NCBI GenBank assembly: GCA_000613065.1 | Contig: CBZS010000558.1 | Location: forward strand, 1 to 34,223 | DNA from: Richelia intracellularis | GTDB lineage: Bacteria; Cyanobacteriota; Cyanobacteriia; Cyanobacteriales; Nostocaceae | Direction: 5' to 3' | DNA: 34,223 nt | In this document: positions 5,045 through 34,223 of the stretch, in pieces | Layout: every line of letters begins with the position of its first letter | Numbering within the stretch: position 1 is the stretch's first letter | Made by a program: the position numbers and the translations under genes | Notes under the pieces: generated by a model | What the model was told of the DNA's origin: nothing | The model's input: the letters and a program-made list of their open reading frames with translations, nothing else | Databases searched by the model: none

Positions 5045-5969
5045 ATGGCTAGACGTTTTAAAACACTGAGTAATTTGGAGTGGTCTTTGTTTGAGCATAT
5101 TTTCCCGAAACCGCCAGAAAAAAGCTAACGAGGAATGCCACATTCTTCATTTCGTTATGTACTCAATACCTTACTGTATATATTGATCACAGGGTGTCGT
5201 TGGTGTGACGTTCCAAAAGGAGAAATATGGGCATCAAAGAGCTCTGCACATCGATGGCTCAAACGTTGGCAGTTGGAGGGGACGTTAGAGGCTTTACAAG
5301 CACTAATATTGGGAATTGGACAAGAGAAAGGGTTAATAAACTGGAGTTATGGCGGGGTGGACGGGTCTTTTTCCCCCTGGGAAGGGCGGTGGTGATGATG
5401 TTGCTTACGGTGGAAAAGGAAAGGGAATTTTGGCGTTGCTGAATCAGGGGATGAATTAGGGTTTGAAAGCATTGAGAAATCGTTGAAAATTTAGTGAAAT
5501 CATCCCCTGATTCAGCAACGCCGGTATTTTAATACACACTCTTACTGAACGCTCAGGAATGCCTTTATCCAATTCCACCACACCTACCAATGGTAGTGAA
5601 ACAGATCAGGCTATACCACTTCTAGACAGTCTAAAGGTTAAGACCAACAAACGCGGTAGACCCCGTAAACCCCTGAAAGGGCTTGCTGCTGACAAAGCCT
5701 ACGATTCTAAGGATAAGCGCGCTGCTTTACGTAGACCTGGTATTAGGCCCAATGGCCCAAGCGGGTTTGGAAGACAAAGAAGAACAAGGCCAGACCCATT
5801 AAAATTTCCGTCTCACGTTTTCAACAAGAACTTTGTTTCCCATGGTTACAAAAAAAATATCGTCGTCTTGTTTGTTGTCACATGGGAAAGAATTTCAGTT
5901 TTTTTTGATGCTTTTTTGTCTCTTGCAACAATCCATATTTGGATTAACAAAATCACATTATTGGGATAG
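5045..5969 (+). pseudogene. IS5-family transposase, interrupted by a MITE
   Basis: Starts MARRFKTLSNLEWSLFEHIF, then a TAA near 5128, then FRYVLNTLLYILITGCRWCD, SSAHRWLKRWQLEGTLEALQ and the first catalytic Asp in YGGVDGSFSPWEG. The MITE at 5432-5522 separates GGKGKGIL from IHTLTERSGMPLSNSTTP. After it come KRGRPRKPLKGLAADKAYDS (second Asp) and, after another frame change near 5750, KYRRL...WERISVFFDAFLSLATIHIW. At least four lesions; inactive. The group differs from the IS5 element at 3436. Confidence 0.85.
5432..5522 (+). mobile_element. 91-bp MITE copy 1, target duplication GGAATTTT/GGTATTTT
   Basis: The two ends are exact complements over GGCGTTGCTGAATCAGGGG and beyond, so the copy can fold into one hairpin. 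Flanks 5424-5431 and 5523-5530 match at 7 of 8 bases. Removing the element and one flank restores the transposase frame (GKGILIHTL). Confidence 0.92.
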
Positions 5970-6439: not shown

Positions 6440-6530
6440 GGCGTTGCATAAGTGCGGGATCATTTCACTAAATTTTCAACGATTTTTCAATGGTTTCAAA
6501 CACTAATTCATCCCGCACTTATGCAACGCC
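6440..6530 (+). mobile_element. 91-bp MITE copy 2, target duplication AAGTAAAA/AAGTAAGA
   Basis: Both ends are of the GGCGTTGCATAAGTGCGGGAT type. Flanks 6432-6439 and 6531-6538 match at 7 of 8 bases. The target overlaps the mltA stop codon, so the element begins three bases after that gene ends. Confidence 0.92.
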
Positions 6531-8364: not shown

Positions 8365-8466
8365 GGGGTTGGATAAGTGCGGGATGAATTAGCGTTTGAA
8401 ACCATTGAGAAAGCATTGAGAAATCGTTGAAAATTTAGTGAAATCATCCCCTGATTCAGCAACGCC
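8365..8466 (+). mobile_element. MITE copy 3, asymmetric ends, no target duplication
   Basis: The left end is a mutated ATAAGTGCGGGATGA type (GGGGTTGG for GGCGTTGC) and the right end is the CTGATTCAGCAACGCC type. Length is 102 bp because of an 11-bp tandem duplication (TTGAGAAAGCA). Flanks CTCACCTT and TAATATTT do not match. Confidence 0.85.
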
Positions 8467-13612: not shown

Positions 13613-13703
13613 GGCGTTGCATAAGTATGGGATGATTTCACTACATTTTCAACGATTTCTTAATGGTTTAAAATGCTAATTCATCCCATACTTATGCAAC
13701 GTC
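13613..13703 (+). mobile_element. 91-bp MITE copy 4, target duplication AGTTTTGC/AGTTTTTC
   Basis: Symmetric ends GCATAAGTATGGGATGA; the final bases GTC instead of GCC. Flanks 13605-13612 and 13704-13711 match at 7 of 8. It sits in the signal-peptide codons. Element plus duplication add 99 bp, so the frame is kept, but a TAA inside the element ends translation. Confidence 0.92.
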
Positions 13704-14128: not shown

Positions 14129-15258
14129 GGGTGCGACTCTTTTGGTAGTAGGGAGTATGATATAAGACTAATAAATGACAATTCAACCACAGTAGTATTG
14201 ACAGGCAAAAATGTACTTGATGGAATTGGCTTGTAAAAAGTGAAAAAACAGGAACAGTTCCACACCCTATGCAAGGATCTACATCAAATCAAAGTATGTT
14301 TTGGTCACAAGCACGAGAACTATTTGAACAGATAGTTAGTTGGTTAGACTCAGACAGCATTTGTGGGTTAAAACACTCCCAGATAGAGAGTAAGTTACTT
14401 GAGAATGGATACGAATTATTGAGACGGTTGTTACAAACAAAGATATTTTGATAAACGCAGTCAAGATGAAATCTAGGGAGAGTGTGCAGGCACAGACTCA
14501 GTAAACAGAACACACAAGAAAAAATTGTCGCGGAAATTGACCACATTATTTGGCACAGTAATCGCCAATAGAATCGGTTCTGGAGGAAGAAAGATAAATA
14601 CCCTATTTCCTTTGGATGGGGAGTTTAATCTACCAGCACAGCAATATTCTCTCTCATGGACTAAGACAGGGATATTATCCATGTGATTGAGTATTTGTGG
14701 AAAGCTGTATTTGTCTTTTATTCTCAGACTTCAACACAGGCAGAAGCTTGGGAGAGCAAACGTTTACAGCTTATCCTTGAAGGTAAATCAAGTTCAGTTG
14801 CCCCAGGTATGCGCCGGAGTGCGACTTTACCCAAACTCACCCCCCCAAGAACGTAAACCCGTGGATACCTGTGCTAGATATTTACTTAACAATGCCAAAT
14901 ACCTCAAATATGACGATTACTTAAAAACTGGATAATCCATCGCCACGGGGGTGATTGAGGGTGCTTGTCGGCACCTGATTAAAGACAGACAGGATGGATA
15001 TGACTGGGGCTAGATGGACGGTGAAGGGTGGTGAGGCTGTTTTACCCCTGGGTTCTTTATACATCAGTGGCGATTGGGATGAGTATTGGCAGTTTCATCT
15101 ACAACAAGAACATAAACCCAATCACCTGGCTTTGTACTCTAGTGGTATTTCTTTGATCAAGCAAGTTCTCAAAGCAAAGCTCGTTGTTCTACTACCCCTC
15201 CACCTCTTCCAATACCTGTCTAAGTTCCACTCCCCCTACTACCAAAAGAGTCGCACCC
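14129..15258 (+). mobile_element. ISKra4-family element, copy 1 (1130 bp, 9-bp target duplication AATTTATTT)
   Basis: Ends GGGTGCGACTCTTTTGGTAG and the exact complement; perfect 9-bp duplicates at 14120-14128 and 15259-15267. Removal restores the host gene frame. Family assigned from the transposase; an internal deletion is likely because the reading jumps from about 14680 to a later region of the protein. Confidence 0.92.
14260..15225 (+). pseudogene. ISKra4-family transposase, degenerate
   Basis: Recognisable pieces: SNQSMFWSQARELFEQIVSW and KLLENGYELLRRLLQ, then several frame changes, VIEYLWKAVFVFYSQTSTQA, MRRSATLPKLTPQERKPVDT, the typical C-terminal IATGVIEGACRHLIKDR, then MDMTGARWTVKGGEAVLPLG and GDWDEYWQFHLQQEHK. 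Stops and shifts separate nearly every piece. Cannot be active. Confidence 0.82.
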
Positions 15259-15503
15259 AATTTATTTTCAGGTAAAGGAAAGGAATGAGCCGGAAAATAA
15301 ATGGAGAACTCTAAAAAAAGATGGGAAGTCAGCTATATATGAAATTCCTGCCAACAATACTCGTGTTTATAATTGGGCATGGAAGAGAAGTCAGGCAAGT
15401 GATTTTCGGATTCTTGTTCGTTATGCAAAACCACTATATCTATTCGGTTTTATGATGGAGAAATAAGACAGTTTTGGCTTTATAATTGAATTTTATTACG
15501 CCT

Positions 15504-15860: not shown

Positions 15861-15951
15861 GGCGTTGTATAAGTGCGGGATGAATTAGGGGTTTTAACCA
15901 TTGAAAAAGCGTTGAAAATTTAGTGCAATCATCCCCTGATTAACAAACACC
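15861..15951 (+). mobile_element. 91-bp MITE copy 5, asymmetric ends, no target duplication
   Basis: Left end GGCGTTGTATAAGTGCGGG, right end CCCCTGATTAACAAACACC. Flanks TAATATCC and CAAGGTAC differ. Confidence 0.87.
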
Positions 15952-18433: not shown

Positions 18434-18524
18434 GGCGTTGGAGAATCAGGGGATGAATTAGCGTTTGAAACTATTGATAAATCGTTGAACATTTAGTGAA
18501 ATCATCCCCTGATTCCGCAACGCC
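18434..18524 (+). mobile_element. 91-bp MITE copy 6, joining IS6 to ISKra4 sequence
   Basis: Symmetric AATCAGGGGATGA-type ends, with mutations (GGCGTTGG and CCGCAACGCC). Flanks GAAATATT and GGTAAATC do not match. The left neighbour is transposase code of IS6, the right neighbour internal code of ISKra4. Confidence 0.9.
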
Positions 18525-18630
18525 GGTAAATCAAGTTCAGTTGCAGCAGGTATGCGCCGGAGTGGGACTTTACCCAAACTCACCCCACAAGAACCTAAAC
18601 CCGTGGATACCTGTGCTAGATATTTACTTA

Positions 18631-19974
18631 GGTTATTATTGAAAAATAAATTACCAGCTAAAGCGGTTGAATCAAGATATCCCATTTGGGCAACAGTGGA
18701 TTTCGCTGTAATCTAGACTCCACTTGTTTCATAGCTTTCTTTGTTAGAGAAATCCCTTTTTGGTAAACAGTTTTACTTAAACTCAAGATAGGATATAAGC
18801 CTTTCCAAGTCATACTCTAAGCCCAGGAAACTATGACTTCAACATCAAGAAGCTTTCCCCCCCCATTCCAATGCTGGTCAAGAATACCCCAACAACCCTC
18901 TATGGGATTGTATTTACTATGGTAAGGAGCATAGTAAAGCAATTGAATTGCTATATTTAGCAGATCAACAAACTCAACCATCCTTTTTTTTAATTGAGTT
19001 CTTACTCCACTACTTCCCGGACCATTATCAATGGTAATTTGTATCAGTTCGGTATCCTGCTTTTGTTCTGGTGTCATTGTCTTCCACCATTGAATTAGAC
19101 TATCAACAATAAAATCCCTGGTTTTATAAGAAAAACTACCAAAGTTAATATAGAATAATAGCCCACTATCTTCATCAAGAATCCCACAGGGAGTATATTT
19201 TTCTATGGCTCCCATATCATGATCCTCAGCTTGATTGTCTCCTCTGGTTTTTCCACCACGAGAATAACCCCCGATATTAACAGTAGCTTTGCAATCCATG
19301 CTTAGTGCTTTGACTTTGAGGCTTCTTAATTGCTGCTCAAATTCTTTGATGTTGTTGAAGATATCATCCGTTTGTGGAATTTTTTTTGAGGTTTGGCTTT
19401 TACTACTTTACGAAGACGAGAGCCCATTCGATTCAATACTTGTGCCATTGTACTAGCGCAAGGCAATTGCTCCTGGCTAAATCCCTGTTCTTTGAGTTTT
19501 TCTAGTGCGGATGTTGCTGTTAACCGGGTATAGGCTAAGGAAGTTTTAAATGTTGGGTCTTGTTGAGAATCAGATTCTGCAATTTGTCCCAGGGATAATG
19601 CCACAACAGAAGAGGTTGTTTCTCCTGGCAACGGTTTGCTGTGCTAAAGGCTGATTGTAATCCCACACAGATTATCCCTGTTCTTTTTTCCACTAACCCT
19701 AACTCTATATTTTCTCTACCCCAACCGAATACTGTTTGTGCTAACCTTGCTCTACCTTGGCAATATTTCAACCTCATCTGAGCTTGAAAGCCCCGACGTT
19801 CTACGCCATTCATTTTTGATGCTGCCAACCGAAAGTCTTCTATTTGTTTGTGATCTTGTTAATGATTTGGGTTCCTCTGGTGGGTCTAGCATACTCCAAA
19901 ATACTTGCCCCTGTTTTTTTACTCATCAACATTACATCTTACTTTCATTGGTAAATTCTTTCTTCTAAATCACA
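18631..19974 (-). mobile_element. ISAzo13-family element, copy A (1344 bp, target duplication TTA)
   Basis: Ends GGTTATT and AAATCACA are inverted relatives of the GGTGATTT ends of copy B. TTA at 18628-18630 and 19975-19977; comparison with the uninterrupted ISKra4 copy confirms the borders. Confidence 0.88.
18658..19926 (-). pseudogene. ISAzo13-family (Rhodopirellula-type DDE) transposase, frameshifted
   Basis: Minus strand: MSKKTGASILEYARPTRGTQ, then MNGVERRGFQAQMRLKYCQG, FGWGRENIELGLVEKRTGII, SLAYTRLTATSALEKLKEQG, MAQVLNRMGSRLRKVVKAKP, then the DDE domain MDCKATVNIGGYSRGGKTRG, LIQITIDNGPGSSGVRTQLK and YYAPYHSKYNPIEGCWGILD, with a late in-frame stop. Several frame changes in the first half. 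Inactive. Confidence 0.87.
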
Positions 19975-20557
19975 TTAACAATCCCAAATAGCTCAAATAA
20001 GACGATATCGCCACGGGGCTGATTGAGGGTGCTTGTCCCCACCTGATTAAAGACAAGATGGATATCACTGGGGCTAGATGGACCATGAGGGGTGCTGAGG
20101 CTGTTTTACCCTTGGGCTCTTTATACATGAGTGGCGATTGGGATGAGTATTGGCAGTTTCATCTACAACAAGAACATAAACGCAATCACCTGGCTTTGTA
20201 CTCTAGTGGTATTCCTTTGATGAAGCAAGTTTTAAAAGCTCGTTTTTCTACTACCCCTCCACCTCTTCCAATACCTGTCTAAGTTCCACTCCCCGTCTTA
20301 CTAAAAGAGTCGCACCCAAATTAAATTGGCTCATATCTACCAATTGAGCAAAGTCAGCAAGGTTTATTTCCCCATCTAAATGCACATCTATCTAGTCTAA
20401 AACTTGCAGTAAATGACGTTGACATAAACCACCATTGTAAACTGGTATCTGGGGTCTTGTCGTCCCATGGTTTCGAAGCAAATGTAGAGCTAAAACCTTT
20501 GCTAGAGAATCAACATCAAGTTCGTTGCCAAAGGATTACCGGTGCAATTCCCATATA

Positions 20558-21714: not shown

Positions 21715-22464
21715 TATAATAACATCATGGCGTTCGCTTCAATTTGTGGATCACGAGTTTGAAATGTTTGTATTAATTCAATGTGTTCGCTATTTTTACC
21801 CAGGGTTTCCTCTCCGACATTCCACACAAATGAGTCTTTAATCCGAATTTGCACGATAATTTGCACATCGCCATCGGTTTGGGTCGATAGGGTTGTATCA
21901 GCAGGAGTAATCAGCACATCACCCTTACTGTAAAGTCCAGCGTAAATACGATTATCTTGCCTATGGGAAAAATGGAAAGGACGGAGTGAAAGTAACAACC
22001 CCAGGTTATGTTCATCCTGAAAATTCCACTTATTTTCACCAGTTCCATAGTTGCAGCAATGGCGACAGTGTCGAATAAAAAGCTGTTCCCATTGCTGAGT
22101 GACATTCCATCCTGGCTGTAAAGCCGGATTTTGAATTGTTGTCACAATCAAATTCGACATGGCAGGGTTTGGTGAATATTTAGCCAAACTGCAGCAATTT
22201 TAACAAAATCTTGTCTACTGCAATCAAATCGCAACAATATTTTTATTGTTTGGTAACCCAATTATTATCCTAGACGCTACGTGAACGGCGAACTGACAAC
22301 TCAGGGCAAACGATCACAAGATTGTGAAATTTCCACAAGAATTAGATCTGGACTTTAGACTAAAGCGGTGACGGCGTACAAATAGCTCGTATAAAAAATA
22401 GAGAGATGCCTGTGTAAAAAACAAGTATCCCACGACGGAAGATGAGAAAAGCAGAACCAATTCT

Positions 22465-23224
22465 GGCGTTGCAGAATAGAGGGATGAATTGAGGTGTTCT
22501 AATGTCCATTGTCCATACTGCAAGTATACGAGGATTAGAAAAAATGGGAAACGTCGAGGTAAACAAAATCACATTTGTGTAAATTGCGAACGCCAATTTA
22601 TAGATATCTATAATGCACCAAAAGGAGACTCAAATGAGATCAAACAACAATGCTTAAAAGCATAGGTTAATGGCTCGGGATTTAGGACTATTGAACGCCA
22701 AAAATGAGTTAATGACACAACCATAATTAGTTAGGTAAAACAAGTTGGTGAAAAATTGCCAGATGCTCCATCAATAGAGAATATCCCAGAAGTTGGGGAA
22801 CTGGATGAATTAGAAACTTTCGTCGGTTCAAACAAAAAAAAACTAAATTTGGTTGTGGACAGCAGTAGACCATTTCCGCCAAGGAATTTTAGCTTGAGTA
22901 CTGGGAGACCATAGTGCAGAAACCTTTCAACCTTTGTGGGATATTGTCTACTTCTGGAAGTGCTATTTTTATATCACAGATGGATAGAAAGTTTACACCA
23001 GTTTTGTTGAACCAGAAGACCATATTATTAGCAAAATATATATGACTAGAGTACAAGGGGAAAACACACGTTTACGTCATTATCTGCCACGTCTACATCG
23101 AAAAACATTATGCTACTCTAAATCCGTAGATATGCTTTAGCACTCTATTCTATTGTTACTGATTTTATTTAAGTATAGATAAATACCTGTATTTGGTTGA
23201 TTCATCCCGCAAATATGCAACGCC
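22465..23224 (+). mobile_element. IS1-family element (760 bp), perfect 8-bp target duplication CCAATTCT
   Basis: Left end GGCGTTGCAGAATAGAGGG, right end (inverted) GGCGTTGCATATTTGCGGG. Identical octamers CCAATTCT at 22457-22464 and 23225-23232. Length is close to the 768 bp of IS1. Its two ends correspond to the two end types of the 91-bp MITEs in this window. Confidence 0.93.
22493..23180 (+). pseudogene. IS1-family transposase, degenerate
   Basis: Zinc-ribbon start CPYCKYTRIRKNGKRRGKQN and ICVNCERQFIDIYNAPKG, then the helix-turn-helix part VNGSGFRTIERQK, VKQVGEKLPDAPSIENIPEV, the first acidic catalytic region GELDELETFVGSNKKK, VDHFRQGILA, FYITDGWKVYTSFVEPEDHI (second Asp) and TRLRHYLPRLHRKTLCYSKS (C-terminal Arg/Tyr region). 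Four or more stops and shifts. InsA- and InsB-like parts lie in order, so the element is full length but dead. Confidence 0.87.
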
Positions 23225-23315
23225 CCAATTCTCTACTTTCATTATGGAACTTGTATCGTAACTCAAAGCATTTCTTCTATATTTTTTGCATCAGTTGAAG
23301 TTCTGGCAATGTTGT

Positions 23316-27817: not shown

Positions 27818-29566
27818 ATGTATATAGAACGTATTCCTAACAGAAACTCTTCCCCAGCCGTTCTGGTTCGCGAGTCATGCCGTGAGGACGGAAAAGTTCG
27901 TAAACTTACCCTTGCGAATCTTTCAAAACTGCGTTTGCAAACGGTAGATGATTTAAAAATTCTGCTTAAAGGAGGTAAAGCAGTAGAAGATTTAGAAAAA
28001 ATATTTAAAATCATTCATAGCCGTCCTCATGGTCATGTGGCGGCAAGACTATCAAGCTTAATACAATTAATATTAGATACCTTAATTGATAGTTAAAACA
28101 GCAAAATAAGAATAATAATTGATGCTATCATAGTGGCACGTATTCTCAAACCAGCTTCTATTTTAGCAACAGTAAGAGGGCTAGATGGAGAAACTTTTTT
28201 CTCCAGTTTAGGGGAAGTTTTAGGATTAGAAGGAGCGGATGAGGATGAATTATATTTGGCGATGGATTTTTGATTGTAACCCCAAGTAAAAATTGAAAAT
28301 AATCTTGCCAAACTTCATATTAAGGAAGGATGTTTGGTTCTATCTGACGTTAGTTCTACATATTTAGAAGGAAAAGCTTTTCCTTTAGCAAAATATGGTT
28401 ATAACCGTGAGAAAAAACGTGGTAAATTACAAATAGTATTTGGGCTATTATGAAATGATAAAGGTTGTCCAATCGCAGTAGAAGTCTTTGAGGGAAATAC
28501 ATCCGACCCAAATAAATTTATTAATCAAATAGATAAGGTGAGCTCGAGATTTGGTATTAAAAGAGTAGTCTGTGTCGGAGACAGTGGAATGAGTACTCAA
28601 GCAAGGATTAGAGAATACTTAAAAGATAAAGAAGGTTTAGACTCGATTAGCGCTTTAAGAGCGAGCGCCTCAAATACAGAAATTAGTAGAAGAATCAGCT
28701 ATTCAATTAGCTCTGTTTGATTAACGAAATTTAGCATCAATAAAAAGCGAAGATTATCCAGGGTAAATATTAATAGCTTGTCTAAATCCTTTATTGGCAG
28801 CAGAAAGAAAGAAAAATAGAGAATAATTATTACAAGCAAGAGAAAAGGAATTAGAGCAAATTGTTGCAGCAACTTAGAGAAAAGCTCGTCCACGAAAAGG
28901 CGAGGATAATATTGGTGTAAGAGTAGGTAAAGTTATCTTCTATCTCAATATTGAAATGTTTTTCAATATTGAGATAGAAGATAACAGTTTTTCATATCAG
29001 ATAAATCAGTCAAAAATTGATGCAGAAGGAGTATTGGATGGTTTATATATTATAATTAGTACATGTTTGGATAAAGAAAGTTCATCTGCTACGGATACAG
29101 TAAAAGCCGATAACAATCTCTCACAAGTAGAACAAACTTTCCGTAGTTATAAAACTGTTGATTTAAAAGTTAGTCCAATTTACGACTATACAGCCGAACG
29201 TGTAAAATTCCATATCTATGTATGTTGTCTTATTATTATGTAGAATGGCATATGGGAGAACTTTTAGCTCCAATACTTTTTGATGAAGATGATTGGGAAG
29301 CAGCAGCAGCGAGAAAAGAATCTGTTGTATCTCTTGCCAAAAAGAACGAAAAAGCTAAAAATAAAGGGAACAAAAAGCTTACCTCAGATAATTTGCCTGT
29401 TCATAGCTTCCAAACTTTATTGGATGATTTCGCTACAATTGTTAAACATACAATTTCTACAACAATTGGTAGTAAATCCTTCGTTTTTGAGAAGATTACT
29501 CAGCCTACAGCTATACAACAAAGAGCAATAGATTTACTCGGAATTAGTATGATTTGTACTCAGTAA
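27818..29566 (+). pseudogene. IS1634-family transposase, many stops and shifts
   Basis: Nearly full-length coding sequence. MYIERIPNRNSSPAVLVRES, KLTLANLSKLRLQTVDDLKI, HSRPHGHVAARLSSL, ARGLDGE-like and LGEVLGLEGADEDELYLAMD (28207-28266), LVLSDVSSTYLEGKAFPLAK (first Asp), GYNREKKRGKLQIVFGLL, CPIAVEVFEGNTSDPNKFIN, IKRVVCVGDSGMSTQARIRE (second Asp), then VEQTFRSYKTVDLKVSPIYD (Glu region), YYVEWHMGELLAPILFDEDD and KITQPTAIQQRAIDLLGISM. At least eight lesions. A perfect 25-bp inverted repeat replaces part of the code at 28932-28985. The 3' end is cut by an IS630 element at the TA of 29564-29565. Confidence 0.87.
28932..28985. repeat. Perfect 25-bp inverted repeat with 4-nt loop
   Basis: Arms 28932-28956 and 28961-28985 are exact complements (starting GTTATCTTCTATCTC) around TGTT. 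The right arm encodes NIEIEDN, as expected for the transposase; the left arm stands where a different sequence is expected. Confidence 0.92.
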
Positions 29567-30078: not shown

Positions 30079-30438
30079 GGGTTTTCAATCCAACCCTAGT
30101 TTCATCCTGACACAAATAATGAACGCACTTCCCCTGTGCTAGATGTTTTTTTAGACAATTGAGAATGATACCGAGTTTTTTTTTTACTCAGATACCAGCT
30201 TTTCATCCTGTTTGTAGCTTTGAGGACGTGGTAATTTTAGTTTTGATCCCAATTCATATCGAACCAATGCATAAACTCTTCCATACTCAATATCAAGTCC
30301 ATGCTCTTTTTTCAACCATTCTACTATCCCACCATAGCTACTAAACCCTTTTCCTGTTTTTAACTCTTGTATGAGTGCTGCGATCGCATCATCATTTATT
30401 TTTCGTTTTGCTCCTGCCGCTTTCTTTATTTCTAATAA

Positions 30439-31779
30439 GGTGATTTTTGAAAAATAAATTACCAGCTAAAGCGGTTGAATCAAGATATCCCATTTGGGCA
30501 ACAGTGGATTTCCCTATAATCTAGACTCGACTTGTTTCATAGCTTTCTTTGTTAGATAAATCCCTTTTTGGTAAACAGTTTTACTTAAACTCAAGATAGG
30601 ATATAAGCTTTTCCAAGTCATACTCGAAGTCCAGGAAAGCATGACTGCAACATCAACAAGCTTCGCCCGCCCCATTCCAATGTTGGTCAAGAATACCCCA
30701 ACAACCCTCTATGGGATTTTATTTACTATGCTAAAGAGGATAGTGAAGCAATTGAATTGGTATATTTAGGAGATCAACAAACTCAACCATCCTTTTTTTA
30801 AATTGAGTTCTTACTCCACTACTTTTCGGACCATTCTCAACTTTAATTTGTATCAGTTCGTTATCCTGCTTTTGTTCTGGTGTCATTGTTTTCCACCATT
30901 GAATTAGAGTATCAACAATAAAATCCCTGGTTTTATAAGAAGAACTACCAAAGTTAATATACAATAATTGCCCACTATCTTCACCAAGAATCCCACAGGG
31001 AGTATATTTTTCAGTGCATCCCATATCATGATCCTCAGCTTGATTGCCTCCTCTGGTTTTTCCACCACCAGAATAACCCCCGATATTAACGGTAGCTTTG
31101 CAATCCATGCTTAGTCCTTTGACTTTGAGGCTTGTTGATTGCGGCTCAAATTCTTTGATGTTGTTGAAGATATCATGGGTTTGTGCAATTTTTTTTGAGG
31201 TTTGCCTTTTACTACTTTACGAAGACCATAGCCCATTCGATTCAATACTTGTGCCATTCTACTAGCACAAGGCAATTGCTCCTGGCTAAATCCCTGTTCT
31301 TTGAGTTTTTCTAGTGCCGATGTTGCTGTTAACCAGGTATAGGCTAAGGAAGTTTAAAATGTTGGGTCTTGTTGAGAATCAGATTCTGCAATTTCTCCCA
31401 GGGATAATGGCACAAGAGAAGAGCTTGTTTCTCCTGGCAACGCTTTGCTGTGCTAAAGGCTGATTGTAATCCTACACAGGTTATCCCTGTTCTTTTTTCC
31501 CCTAACCCTAACTCTATATTTTCTCGACCTCAACCGAATAGTGTTTGTGCTAACCTTGCTCTATCTTGGCAATATTTCAACGTCATCTGAGCTTGAAAGC
31601 CCCGACGTTCTACTCCATTCATTTTCGATGCTGCCAACCGCAAGTCTTATATTTGTGATCTTGTTAATGATTTGGGTTCCTCTGTTGGGTCTAGCATACT
31701 CCAAAAGACTTGCCCCTGTTTTTTTACTCATCAACATTACATCTTACTTTCATTGGTAAATTCTTTCTTATAAATCACC
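30439..31779 (-). mobile_element. ISAzo13-family element, copy B (1341 bp)
   Basis: Ends GGTGATTT and AAATCACC, inverted repeats extending imperfectly over about 25 bp. Flanks are TAA on the left and TTA on the right, so a direct duplication is not exact here, unlike copy A (TTA/TTA). Sequence nearly identical to copy A over its whole length. Confidence 0.88.
30466..31731 (-). pseudogene. ISAzo13-family transposase, copy B, frameshifted
   Basis: The same order of motifs as copy A (MDCKATVNIGGYSGGGKTRG, TPCGILGEDSGQLLYINFGS, RTQFKKRMVEFVDLLNIPIQ), with further damage: the PYHSKYNPIEGCWGI region shows a frame change after LLHYPL, and the N-terminal half is shifted at least twice. Changes differ from copy A, so both decayed separately. 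Confidence 0.85.
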
Positions 31780-32102
31780 TTATCCAGACAGACAAGCAGT
31801 TCTATACTTATGCAACGATTTTGTCACTGTTGAAGTATCTCTAGCCAAGGGTTTCCTGATTTATTTCTGCTGCTTTACTTGTCCACTTGGCATTGAGCCA
31901 CGACAACATCTGTAGTTTTTCTTTCTAGTTTCCCAATCTGGCTGTCTGTAGCAGTTTTTTTAGTTCCTCTTCGGTATACGTGTTCCCAATCTTAAATCGG
32001 CGGCTCATGAGTATTGAAATCGTTCAAGTTTGCTTTACCCTATATGCACCTTCATACTCAATTAGTATGACATTGATGAGTTAACCACTGGTGAAATAAA
32101 TC

Positions 32103-33701: not shown

Positions 33702-33792
33702 GGCGTTGCATAAGTGCGGGTTCAATTAGCGTTTGAAACCATTGAGAAATCGTTGAAAATTTAGTTAAATTATCCCCTTATTTAGCAACGTC
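33702..33792 (+). mobile_element. 91-bp MITE copy 7, asymmetric ends, no target duplication
   Basis: Left end GGCGTTGCATAAGTGCGGG, right end CCCCTTATTTAGCAACGTC. Flanks GAAAAAAC and TAAGTTCT differ. Lies 16 bp after the cryptochrome stop. Confidence 0.9.
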
Positions 33793-34140: not shown

Positions 34141-34223
34141 GCATCTGGCAATTTTTTACCAACTTGTTTTACTAAACTGATTATGGTTGTGTGATGAACT
34201 CCTTTTTCCCGTTCAATAGCCCT
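34141..34223 (-). pseudogene. IS1-family transposase fragment at the window edge
   Basis: Minus strand: RAIEREKGVHHTTIISLVKQ then VGKKLPDA, matching FRTIERQK and VKQVGEKLPDAP of the element at 22465. The similarity stops at about 34141. It runs past the window end, so it is a second, broken copy of the IS1 family. Its ends are not visible here. Confidence 0.75.

What the first reader, a model, noticed from the sequence alone, without database searches (positions are those of the whole stretch)
22465..23224. A complete IS1-family element appears to be the parent of the 91-bp MITE family
Seen: the 760-bp element begins GGCGTTGCAGAATAGAGGG and ends (inverted) GGCGTTGCATATTTGCGGG, with a perfect 8-bp duplication CCAATTCT. 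The MITEs at 5432, 6440, 8365, 13613, 15861, 18434 and 33702 carry GGCGTTGCTGAATCAGGGG or GGCGTTGCATAAGTGCGGG ends, and three of them have clear 8-bp duplications. The similarity covers roughly the outer 30 bases of each end. Known: IS1 is about 768 bp and duplicates 8-9 bp. Inference: the MITEs are internal-deletion derivatives mobilised by this transposase family. The asymmetric copies (one end of each kind) have the same pair of end types as the IS.
Basis: partly seen in the sequence, partly recalled or inferred. Interest (0 to 1): 0.8.

Follow-up and report, generated by a model that had tools for sequence, protein, structure and literature searches.

The report
Dead IS1 element with matching mini-transposons
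A cyanobacterial genome carries more than forty worn-out copies of a small jumping gene and hundreds of 91-base mini-elements that were probably moved by the same kind of enzyme, but the mini-elements are not shortened copies of the jumping gene, and every copy of the jumping gene that could be checked shares one broken codon.

Summary
Window 22465-23224 is an IS1-family element, 760 bp, with GGCGTTGC ends and a perfect 8-bp duplication. The seven MITEs are where stated. 'Complete' is true of the ends only: the transposase gene is broken.

MITEs and IS very probably used the same transposase: shared ends, 8-bp duplications, the same target signature in register, equal ages, and insertion into each other at sites the signature ranks first or second. 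But the MITE is not an internal deletion of this IS. Its 39-bp interior matches no IS interior tested; one end (B) matches the right end of relatives' IS1 elements at 28 of 29 bases; the other (A) is on none of 54 IS ends read here. The MITE occurs at low copy, with both end types, in Nostoc, Calothrix, Fortiea and Komarekiella.

Two additions. All 44 IS places that span insA codon 62 carry TAG, where 13 relatives carry Tyr, and even inherited mutations look neutral: the IS itself seems to have spread as a non-autonomous passenger. MITEs with two like ends carry mirrored private mutations, which suggests arm-to-arm correction. The helper transposase was not found.

The parts
22465..23224 (+). 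IS1-family element, 760 bp, decayed copy (one of more than 40 in this genome)
   Evidence: (PF03400 75.8 bits in six-frame search with 5 stops inside)
22457..22464 (.). left target-site duplication CCAATTCT
23225..23232 (.). right target-site duplication CCAATTCT
22663..22665 (+). in-frame TAG in insA (codon 62 of the open frame), shared by 44 of 44 genome places that span it; Tyr (TAC/TAT) in 13 of 13 relatives read
22834..22843 (+). A-run at the insA/insB' overlap, where two-frame relatives would shift by -1
   Evidence: inference from the frame layout
5432..5522 (+). 91-bp MITE, end type AA; flanks GGAATTTT / GGTATTTT
6440..6530 (-). 91-bp MITE, end type BB; flanks TCTTACTT / TTTTACTT (read on the minus strand)
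8365..8466 (+). MITE, end type BA, lengthened by a short internal duplication; no duplication of the flank seen
13613..13703 (-). 91-bp MITE, end type BB, with private octet ATAAGTAT mirrored in both arms; flanks GAAAAACT / GCAAAACT (read on the minus strand)
15861..15951 (+). 91-bp MITE, end type BA; no duplication of the flank seen
18434..18524 (+). 91-bp MITE, end type AA; no duplication of the flank seen
33702..33792 (+). 91-bp MITE, end type BA; no duplication of the flank seen
34141..34223 (-). fragment of a second copy of the same IS, cut by the contig end (88% over 83 nt)
   Evidence: (I8)

Best explanation
The window lies in a Nostocales cyanobacterium in which one IS1-family transposition system drove a burst of two kinds of non-autonomous element at about the same time: a full-length IS1-type element that already carried an amber codon in insA, and an older 91-bp MITE with an unrelated interior whose ends the same transposase accepts. 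The transposase recognises the outer ends (GGCGTTGC-N8-GGGATGA), inserts into an AT-centred symmetric target and duplicates 8 bp. It must have come from an intact helper copy that was lost or is missing from the draft assembly. The MITE is not a deletion product of this IS: its B end descends from, or shares ancestry with, the right end of IS1 elements of related Nostocales, its A end is of a type not seen on this genome's IS, and its interior is foreign. The near-palindromic MITE arms were sometimes corrected against each other, turning the ancestral B/A elements into B/B or A/A. Shown: ends, duplications, shared target signature, reciprocal nesting, shared TAG, neutral mutation spectrum, equal terminal divergence, mirrored mutations. 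Inferred: that the mobilising enzyme was IS1-family, that a helper existed, and that arm correction worked by template switching.
For: Same ends and 8-bp duplications in IS (8 of 27 exact, 12 of 27 with at most 1 mismatch) and MITE (31 and 50 of 97). A 20-bp target matrix trained on 49 MITE sites puts 12 own IS sites at a mean AT-matched percentile of 0.947; sliding the register by 1-2 bp drops this to 0.49-0.65. Its top site in the MITE is position 44, at which five IS loci sit; its second-best site in the IS is position 710, where five loci carry a MITE. Equal terminal divergence: 1.47% of IS bases and 1.59% of MITE interior bases are singletons at 27 copies. TAG in 44 of 44 spanning places; inherited and singleton changes at near-neutral syn/non ratios in own copies, but third-position bias against relatives. 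Interior unlike the 14 IS interiors tested. 17 of 17 MITE copies from named relatives are B/A. Mirrored mutations: 7 in 36 symmetric copies, shuffle mean 0.67, 0 of 2000 shuffles reach 7; asymmetric control 1 against 1.49. An intact relative's transposase is IS1 by NCBIfam (267 bits, cut-off 100).
Against: No intact helper was found. Genome G069 holds 84 such ends and no PF03400 match at E <= 0.01, so the MITE-IS1 link is not needed in every host today. MITE end patterns and IS1 transposases co-occur only weakly in the family: 21 genomes hold both, of 40 with the A end and 62 with the transposase among 145; one-sided Fisher p = 0.10. Only 12 IS sites could be used for the target test, no unrelated element with 8-bp duplications was scored as a control, and the 15 IS copies without a duplication also scored high on targets made mostly of real left flank (0.70-1.00). 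15 of 27 full-length IS copies have no 8-bp duplication at the 1-mismatch limit. The mirrored-mutation signal rests on BB copies (5 against 0.40); AA alone is weak (2 against 0.45, 127 of 2000 shuffles). The draft (857 contigs) may hide identical recent copies.
Confidence: 0.7

Rival explanations
1. The MITEs are internal-deletion derivatives of this IS.
For: Shared ends and 8-bp duplications; B end similar to the IS right end, 25 of 29 bases. Internally shortened IS copies do exist: C137 lacks about 165 bp (element positions 124-288) and C830 about 46 bp.
Against: Those two keep most of the IS and are far from 91 bp. The 39-bp interior does not beat shuffles against the own IS consensus (280 of 300 shuffles score as high) or 13 relatives (lowest 56 of 300). 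The A octet is on none of 54 own IS ends. MITE copies with both end types are in several other genera.
Confidence: 0.06
2. The MITEs were mobilised by a transposase of another family that happens to recognise GGCGTTGC ends, and the IS1 is incidental.
For: G069 has 84 A/B-type ends and no IS1 transposase found; weak co-occurrence across 145 genomes.
Against: 231 of 234 end motifs in the own-genome sample belong to this IS or these MITEs. Shared register-exact target signature and reciprocal nesting. B end equals the right end of relatives' IS1 L139 and L142 at 28 of 29 bases.
Confidence: 0.13
3. The TAG codon is read through, so the IS copies were autonomous during the burst.
For: TAG is unchanged in 44 of 44 spanning places; but 31 of 126 codons of that frame are also invariant in the 27 full-length copies, so this is weak.
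Against: Changes shared by two or more copies are not enriched for synonymous ones (insA 5 of 40, insB 9 of 62; about 21% expected) and include further stops (4 of 40 and 9 of 62). None of 13 relatives has the TAG. In three copies a 4-nt insertion upstream shifts the frame before the TAG as well.
Confidence: 0.05
4. Like-ended MITEs (AA, BB) arose by exchange or hybrid transposition between elements, not by correction within one element.
For: Ends do move between element types: 6 of 54 IS ends carry the MITE B octet or ATAAGTAC, and one MITE (L179, 10873) carries the IS left octet. L006 looks like a recombined IS-MITE end.
Against: Private mutations are mirrored inside single copies (7 observed, 0.67 expected), and A/B is absent (0 of 97), which fits copying of one arm onto the other, though only about 2.8 A/B would be expected from independent ends.
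Confidence: 0.3

Closest known systems
IS1 family (NF033558, PF03400), including two-frame members
   Same: Transposase family (curated model met by an intact relative, PF03400 by the window copy), about 755 bp, inverted ends, 8-bp duplications, insA and insB' frames overlapping at an A-run.
   Different: Every copy of this genome that spans the codon carries TAG in insA. The E. coli IS1 length and 9-bp duplication are recalled, not fetched.
187-bp Microcystis MITE linked to ISL3 (PMC11448079, passages read)
   Same: Cyanobacterial MITE with 8-nt duplications assigned to an IS by shared ends.
   Different: Different ends (GGCTCTTCG) and a different transposase family (ISL3); 31-33 identical copies rather than hundreds.
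MITEs of Anabaena sp. 90 (PMC3542288, passages read)
   Same: MITEs of a related filamentous cyanobacterium, 77-541 bp, 147 complete or partial copies, folding as hairpins.
   Different: [quoted passage not shown] the sequences were not seen here.
Nezha and other Anabaena MITEs (seen here only as mentions and references in PMC10969869)
   Same: MITEs of filamentous cyanobacteria.
   Different: Sequences not seen; identity with the present family is untested.

Membership tests
IS1 family insertion sequence | transposase of the IS1 type | tested here: met
   window copy matches PF03400 at 75.8 bits in the six-frame search; intact relative L133 matches NF033558 at 267 bits, cut-off 100. Two short open frames of the window copy taken alone gave no Pfam match at E <= 0.01
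IS1 family insertion sequence | about 700-800 bp with inverted terminal repeats | tested here: met
   27 distinct full-length copies, 749-763 bp
IS1 family insertion sequence | 8-9 bp target duplication | tested here: met
   8 of 27 exact and 12 of 27 with at most 1 mismatch at 8 bp
IS1 family insertion sequence | intact, self-sufficient transposase gene | tested here: not met
   TAG in 44 of 44 spanning places; none of 27 full-length copies shows an unbroken insA frame
IS1 family insertion sequence | programmed -1 frameshift | not testable with these tools
   frame layout and A-run fit; needs expression data
MITE | short, non-coding, inverted ends, many copies | tested here: met
   97 full-length copies in 762 kb, 95 of them 91 nt when extended to the model ends; about 617 estimated genome-wide
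MITE | target duplication | tested here: met
   31 of 97 with exactly 8 bp, control 0.055
MITE | ends shared with a resident IS | tested here: met
   B end 25 of 29 with the own IS right end; A end only 20-21 of 29
internal-deletion derivative of the IS | interior continuous with IS subterminal sequence | tested here: not met
   no alignment above shuffles against own consensus and 13 relatives
MITE moved by IS1 transposase | direct mobilisation in trans | not testable with these tools
   needs a transposition assay

The most novel reading that the evidence does not exclude
A bacterial genome records a burst in which an IS1 element already dead through an amber codon in its founder multiplied to more than forty copies (at least 27 full length) purely as a passenger, side by side with some six hundred MITEs of a different interior, both driven in trans by a vanished helper; across Nostocales one A/B pair of ends carries several different interiors, so the ends, not the transposase gene, are the unit that persists, and palindromic arm correction keeps remaking the ends.
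Probability: 0.45. Interest if true: 0.6.

Novelty: new member of a known kind. Interest (0 to 1): 0.48.

Why it matters
IS transposases are usually thought to prefer the copy that encodes them (recalled). A family in which every copy read carries the same stop codon and inherited mutations look neutral would be a clear natural case of a full-length IS spreading in trans. The two element types share ends and targets, so the genome offers a matched test of how MITEs come to outnumber an IS by roughly ten to one (estimate). The mirrored mutations point to palindrome correction at work in natural elements.

Tried and rejected
Internal-deletion origin: rejected after interior alignments; two internally shortened IS copies (C137, C830) do not lead towards the MITE. 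Another IS family with the same ends in this genome: none in the 762-kb sample. Among the A-end loci of relatives that were read, those with a recognised partner end were short elements of 91 to about 324 bp, and the rest had no recognised partner; two longer candidates from G069 (765 and 1521 bp, 1 mismatch in the repeat) have unlike far ends and were set aside as chance. A special attraction of IS to MITEs: not needed, since the ordinary target signature already ranks those sites first or second. Phage records: no match to the MITE. Co-occurrence of ends and IS1 transposase as proof: only p = 0.10. Absence of A/B MITEs alone: 0 observed, about 2.8 expected from the margins (my arithmetic), so weak. 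No structure prediction or fold search was run, since the family assignment was clear.

Papers: passages read of PMC3542288, PMC11448079, PMC4369082 (one reference only), PMC10969869 and PMC3718332; all others seen only as search listings with the start of the abstract. In those seven searches I recognised no report of an IS1-linked cyanobacterial MITE; one paper on insertion sequences of Anabaena PCC 7120 (PMC2950511) was not held.

Limits and rows dropped: fetched 60 stretches of the own genome (761,784 bases with the window, after removing a 5-kb overlap). The stretches came from long contigs that had earlier hits and those from contigs with IS copies, so pooled densities are biased upwards; alone (contigs C200-C219) gave 8 MITEs in 111,644 bases. 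C770 and C484 look like one locus assembled twice and are counted twice in the 97 MITEs and the 44 TAG places. The mirrored-mutation test used the 95 of 97 copies that are 91 nt. The 13 relatives came from 29 relative loci (L127-L155), keeping those in which both ends had been located; L130 and L131 have nearly the same sequence. For the target test of relatives' IS I used 8 loci with an exact 8-bp repeat; L144 (9 bp) was left out. That the interiors of the other A/B-ended MITEs differ from the 91-bp one was judged by eye and length, not by alignment. An earlier count said 7 other genomes have the MITE pattern; one search shows the own genome and six of 39 relatives.

Full report
WHAT IS THERE. 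The 760-bp element at 22465-23224 has the stated ends and a perfect 8-bp duplication. GGCGTTGC occurs 10 times in the window where shuffles give 0.30. Its DNA matches 44 places in the genome at E <= 0.001; 40 of these are long matches at 88-100% identity (itself included), and only 40 of 534 candidates were scored. The IS1 transposase profile PF03400 gives 53 places, fragments included, all 65 candidates scored. The seven MITEs are at the stated positions.

THE MITE FAMILY. A strict pattern gives 572 matches genome-wide (both strands; one MITE can match twice) against 0 for the reversed pattern. In the 761,784-base sample, 109 MITEs (97 full length) hold 101 pattern matches, so the whole genome holds roughly 617 copies, about 1% of the genome by my arithmetic. 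Of the 97, 31 have a longest exact flanking repeat of exactly 8 bp, 3 of 6 bp, 1 of 9 bp, 2 of 11 bp (one locus assembled twice) and 60 have none; 50 of 97 reach 8 bp with at most one mismatch; the shuffled-flank mean for 8 bp exact is 0.055. The ends differ in an octet between constant blocks: B (ATAAGTGC) and A (TGAATCAG). With the interior as reference, 61 copies are B/A, 25 B/B, 11 A/A and none A/B. All 17 MITE copies found in 14 named relatives (Nostoc, Fortiea, Komarekiella, Calothrix and unnamed Nostocales) by a B-end pattern have an A-type other end, so B/A is probably ancestral. The strict pattern is in 6 of 39 relatives, 1-3 matches each.

ONE MACHINERY FOR BOTH. IS copies also duplicate 8 bp: 8 of 27 exact, 12 of 27 with at most one mismatch, 15 of 27 without. 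MITE target sites share a symmetric signature, with an AT-rich centre in the 8 bp and A/T at 96% two bases outside (50 sites read on both strands). A matrix from 49 MITE sites ranks the 12 usable own IS sites at a mean AT-matched percentile of 0.947 (lowest 0.73); shifting the register by -2, -1, +1, +2 gives 0.65, 0.56, 0.62, 0.49. Relatives' IS1 sites score 0.83 (n = 8; three of them only 0.50-0.64) and relatives' A-ended MITEs of 91-323 bp score 0.95 (n = 14). The 15 IS copies without a duplication, run as a control and not expected to be high, also gave 0.70-1.00: most of that target is real left flank, so this control is not independent.

RECIPROCAL NESTING. Five IS loci abut a MITE cut in its middle: C418 (both halves present), C667, C758, C573 and C489 (one half each), all at MITE positions 43-51, in both orientations. 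Position 44 is the best-scoring site of the MITE. In the first 30 loci, 4 such IS copies is more than the 1.27% occupancy of the biased sample predicts (p = 5e-4). Five loci carry a MITE in the IS at 710-720: C736 and C360 with the 8-bp repeat (exact, and 7 of 8), C770/C484 (one locus) with an 11-bp repeat, C430 and C11 with the outer IS remainder missing; both orientations occur. Position 710 is the second-best site of the IS. C377 has a MITE near position 631, and C626 one after position 569 without a repeat. No special attraction is needed. Both orientations mean at least two independent events each way; how many is not known.

NOT A DELETION DERIVATIVE. The 39-bp MITE interior scores 15 against the own IS consensus, where 280 of 300 shuffles do as well; for 13 relatives between 56 and 299 of 300 do. 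The B end matches the right end of relatives' IS1 L139 and L142 at 28 of 29 bases, and the own IS right end at 25; the A end reaches at most 23 of 29 (L141, right end, with the relatives' form of A). Other Nostocales carry short elements with an A end and mostly a B end at the far side, of other lengths (97-324 bp) and, by eye, other interiors, many with exact 8-bp repeats. The A end of one of these families continues TTGAGG, as many IS1 left ends do; this is suggestive only. Two own IS copies are internally shortened by about 165 and 46 bp (C137, C830), but nothing links them to the MITE.

THE IS WAS DEAD FROM ITS FOUNDER. All 27 full-length copies carry TAG at the aligned codon 62 of the insA frame; all 13 relatives read TAC or TAT. 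Extending to fragments, 44 of 44 spanning places have TAG, and 15 further fragments do not span it; the C377 copy has a stop at the same place. Singleton changes are 19% (insA, 24 of 129) and 22% (insB, 31 of 142) synonymous against 21% expected without selection; changes shared by two or more copies are 5 of 40 and 9 of 62 synonymous and include stops. Against relatives the consensus shows third-position bias (for L144 36 of 59 changes in insA and 31 of 50 in insB), so selection acted before the burst but not, as far as this shows, during it. Parallel mutation or gene conversion between copies could blur the shared class. Terminal divergence of IS and MITE is the same (1.47% and 1.59%), so the bursts look contemporary. 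I infer a helper transposase in trans, now lost or hidden in the draft.

ARM CORRECTION. In the 36 symmetric copies, 7 private changes are mirrored in both arms (shuffle mean 0.67, 0 of 2000 reach 7); two of these are adjacent in one copy, so 6 copies are involved. BB alone gives 5 against 0.40 (0 of 2000), AA alone 2 against 0.45 (127 of 2000). In 59 asymmetric copies 1 is mirrored (mean 1.49). Three symmetric MITEs of the window fold as long hairpins (z -8.5, -8.2, -10.0), one asymmetric copy less so (-2.1; four of the seven folded). Template switching that homogenises inverted-repeat arms is a described process (abstract starts in the listing); its action here is inferred.

RESULTS AGAINST. 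G069, 99% complete in 3 contigs, has 84 A/B-type ends and no PF03400 match at E <= 0.01; in the loci and regions that I read (20 regions and 10 search loci) these were MITEs or ends without a recognised partner. Across 145 genomes 40 have the A end and 62 the transposase, 21 both (p = 0.10). No unrelated element was scored as a control for the target matrix.

VERDICT. An IS1-family element and a MITE family moved by the same kind of enzyme: well supported as far as sequence can. Parent and deletion derivative: not supported. The shared amber codon with neutral inherited mutations is the more surprising part.

Noticed in passing
window 18620-19977 and 30428-31782: A segment of about 1.35 kb is duplicated in pieces at 92-97% identity (repeat families D2, D3, D5); nature not examined.
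   Followed up: no
window 14782-15264, 18525-18630 and 20007-20323: Further direct repeats (D4, D9-D12) that may be fragments of another mobile element.
   Followed up: no
window 28932-28985: Perfect 25-nt inverted repeat with a 4-nt loop (I19).
   Followed up: no
window 8365-8466: MITE copy lengthened to 102 bp by a short internal duplication.
   Followed up: partly
L197 (G000:C770) and L198 (G000:C484): The same nested IS-MITE locus seems to be assembled on two contigs of the draft.
   Followed up: partly
G000:C137:1651-2232 and G000:C830:2008-2705: IS copies with internal deletions of about 165 and 46 bp.
   Followed up: no
G069, e.g. L256-L285: A second MITE family with A/B-type ends, variable length and no IS1 transposase found in a nearly complete genome.
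   Followed up: partly
L142, L139, L148 against L133, L131, L141: Some relatives' IS1 elements have insA and insB' in two frames overlapping at an A-run, others one fused frame; the L142 type is multi-copy in its genome G148.
   Followed up: partly
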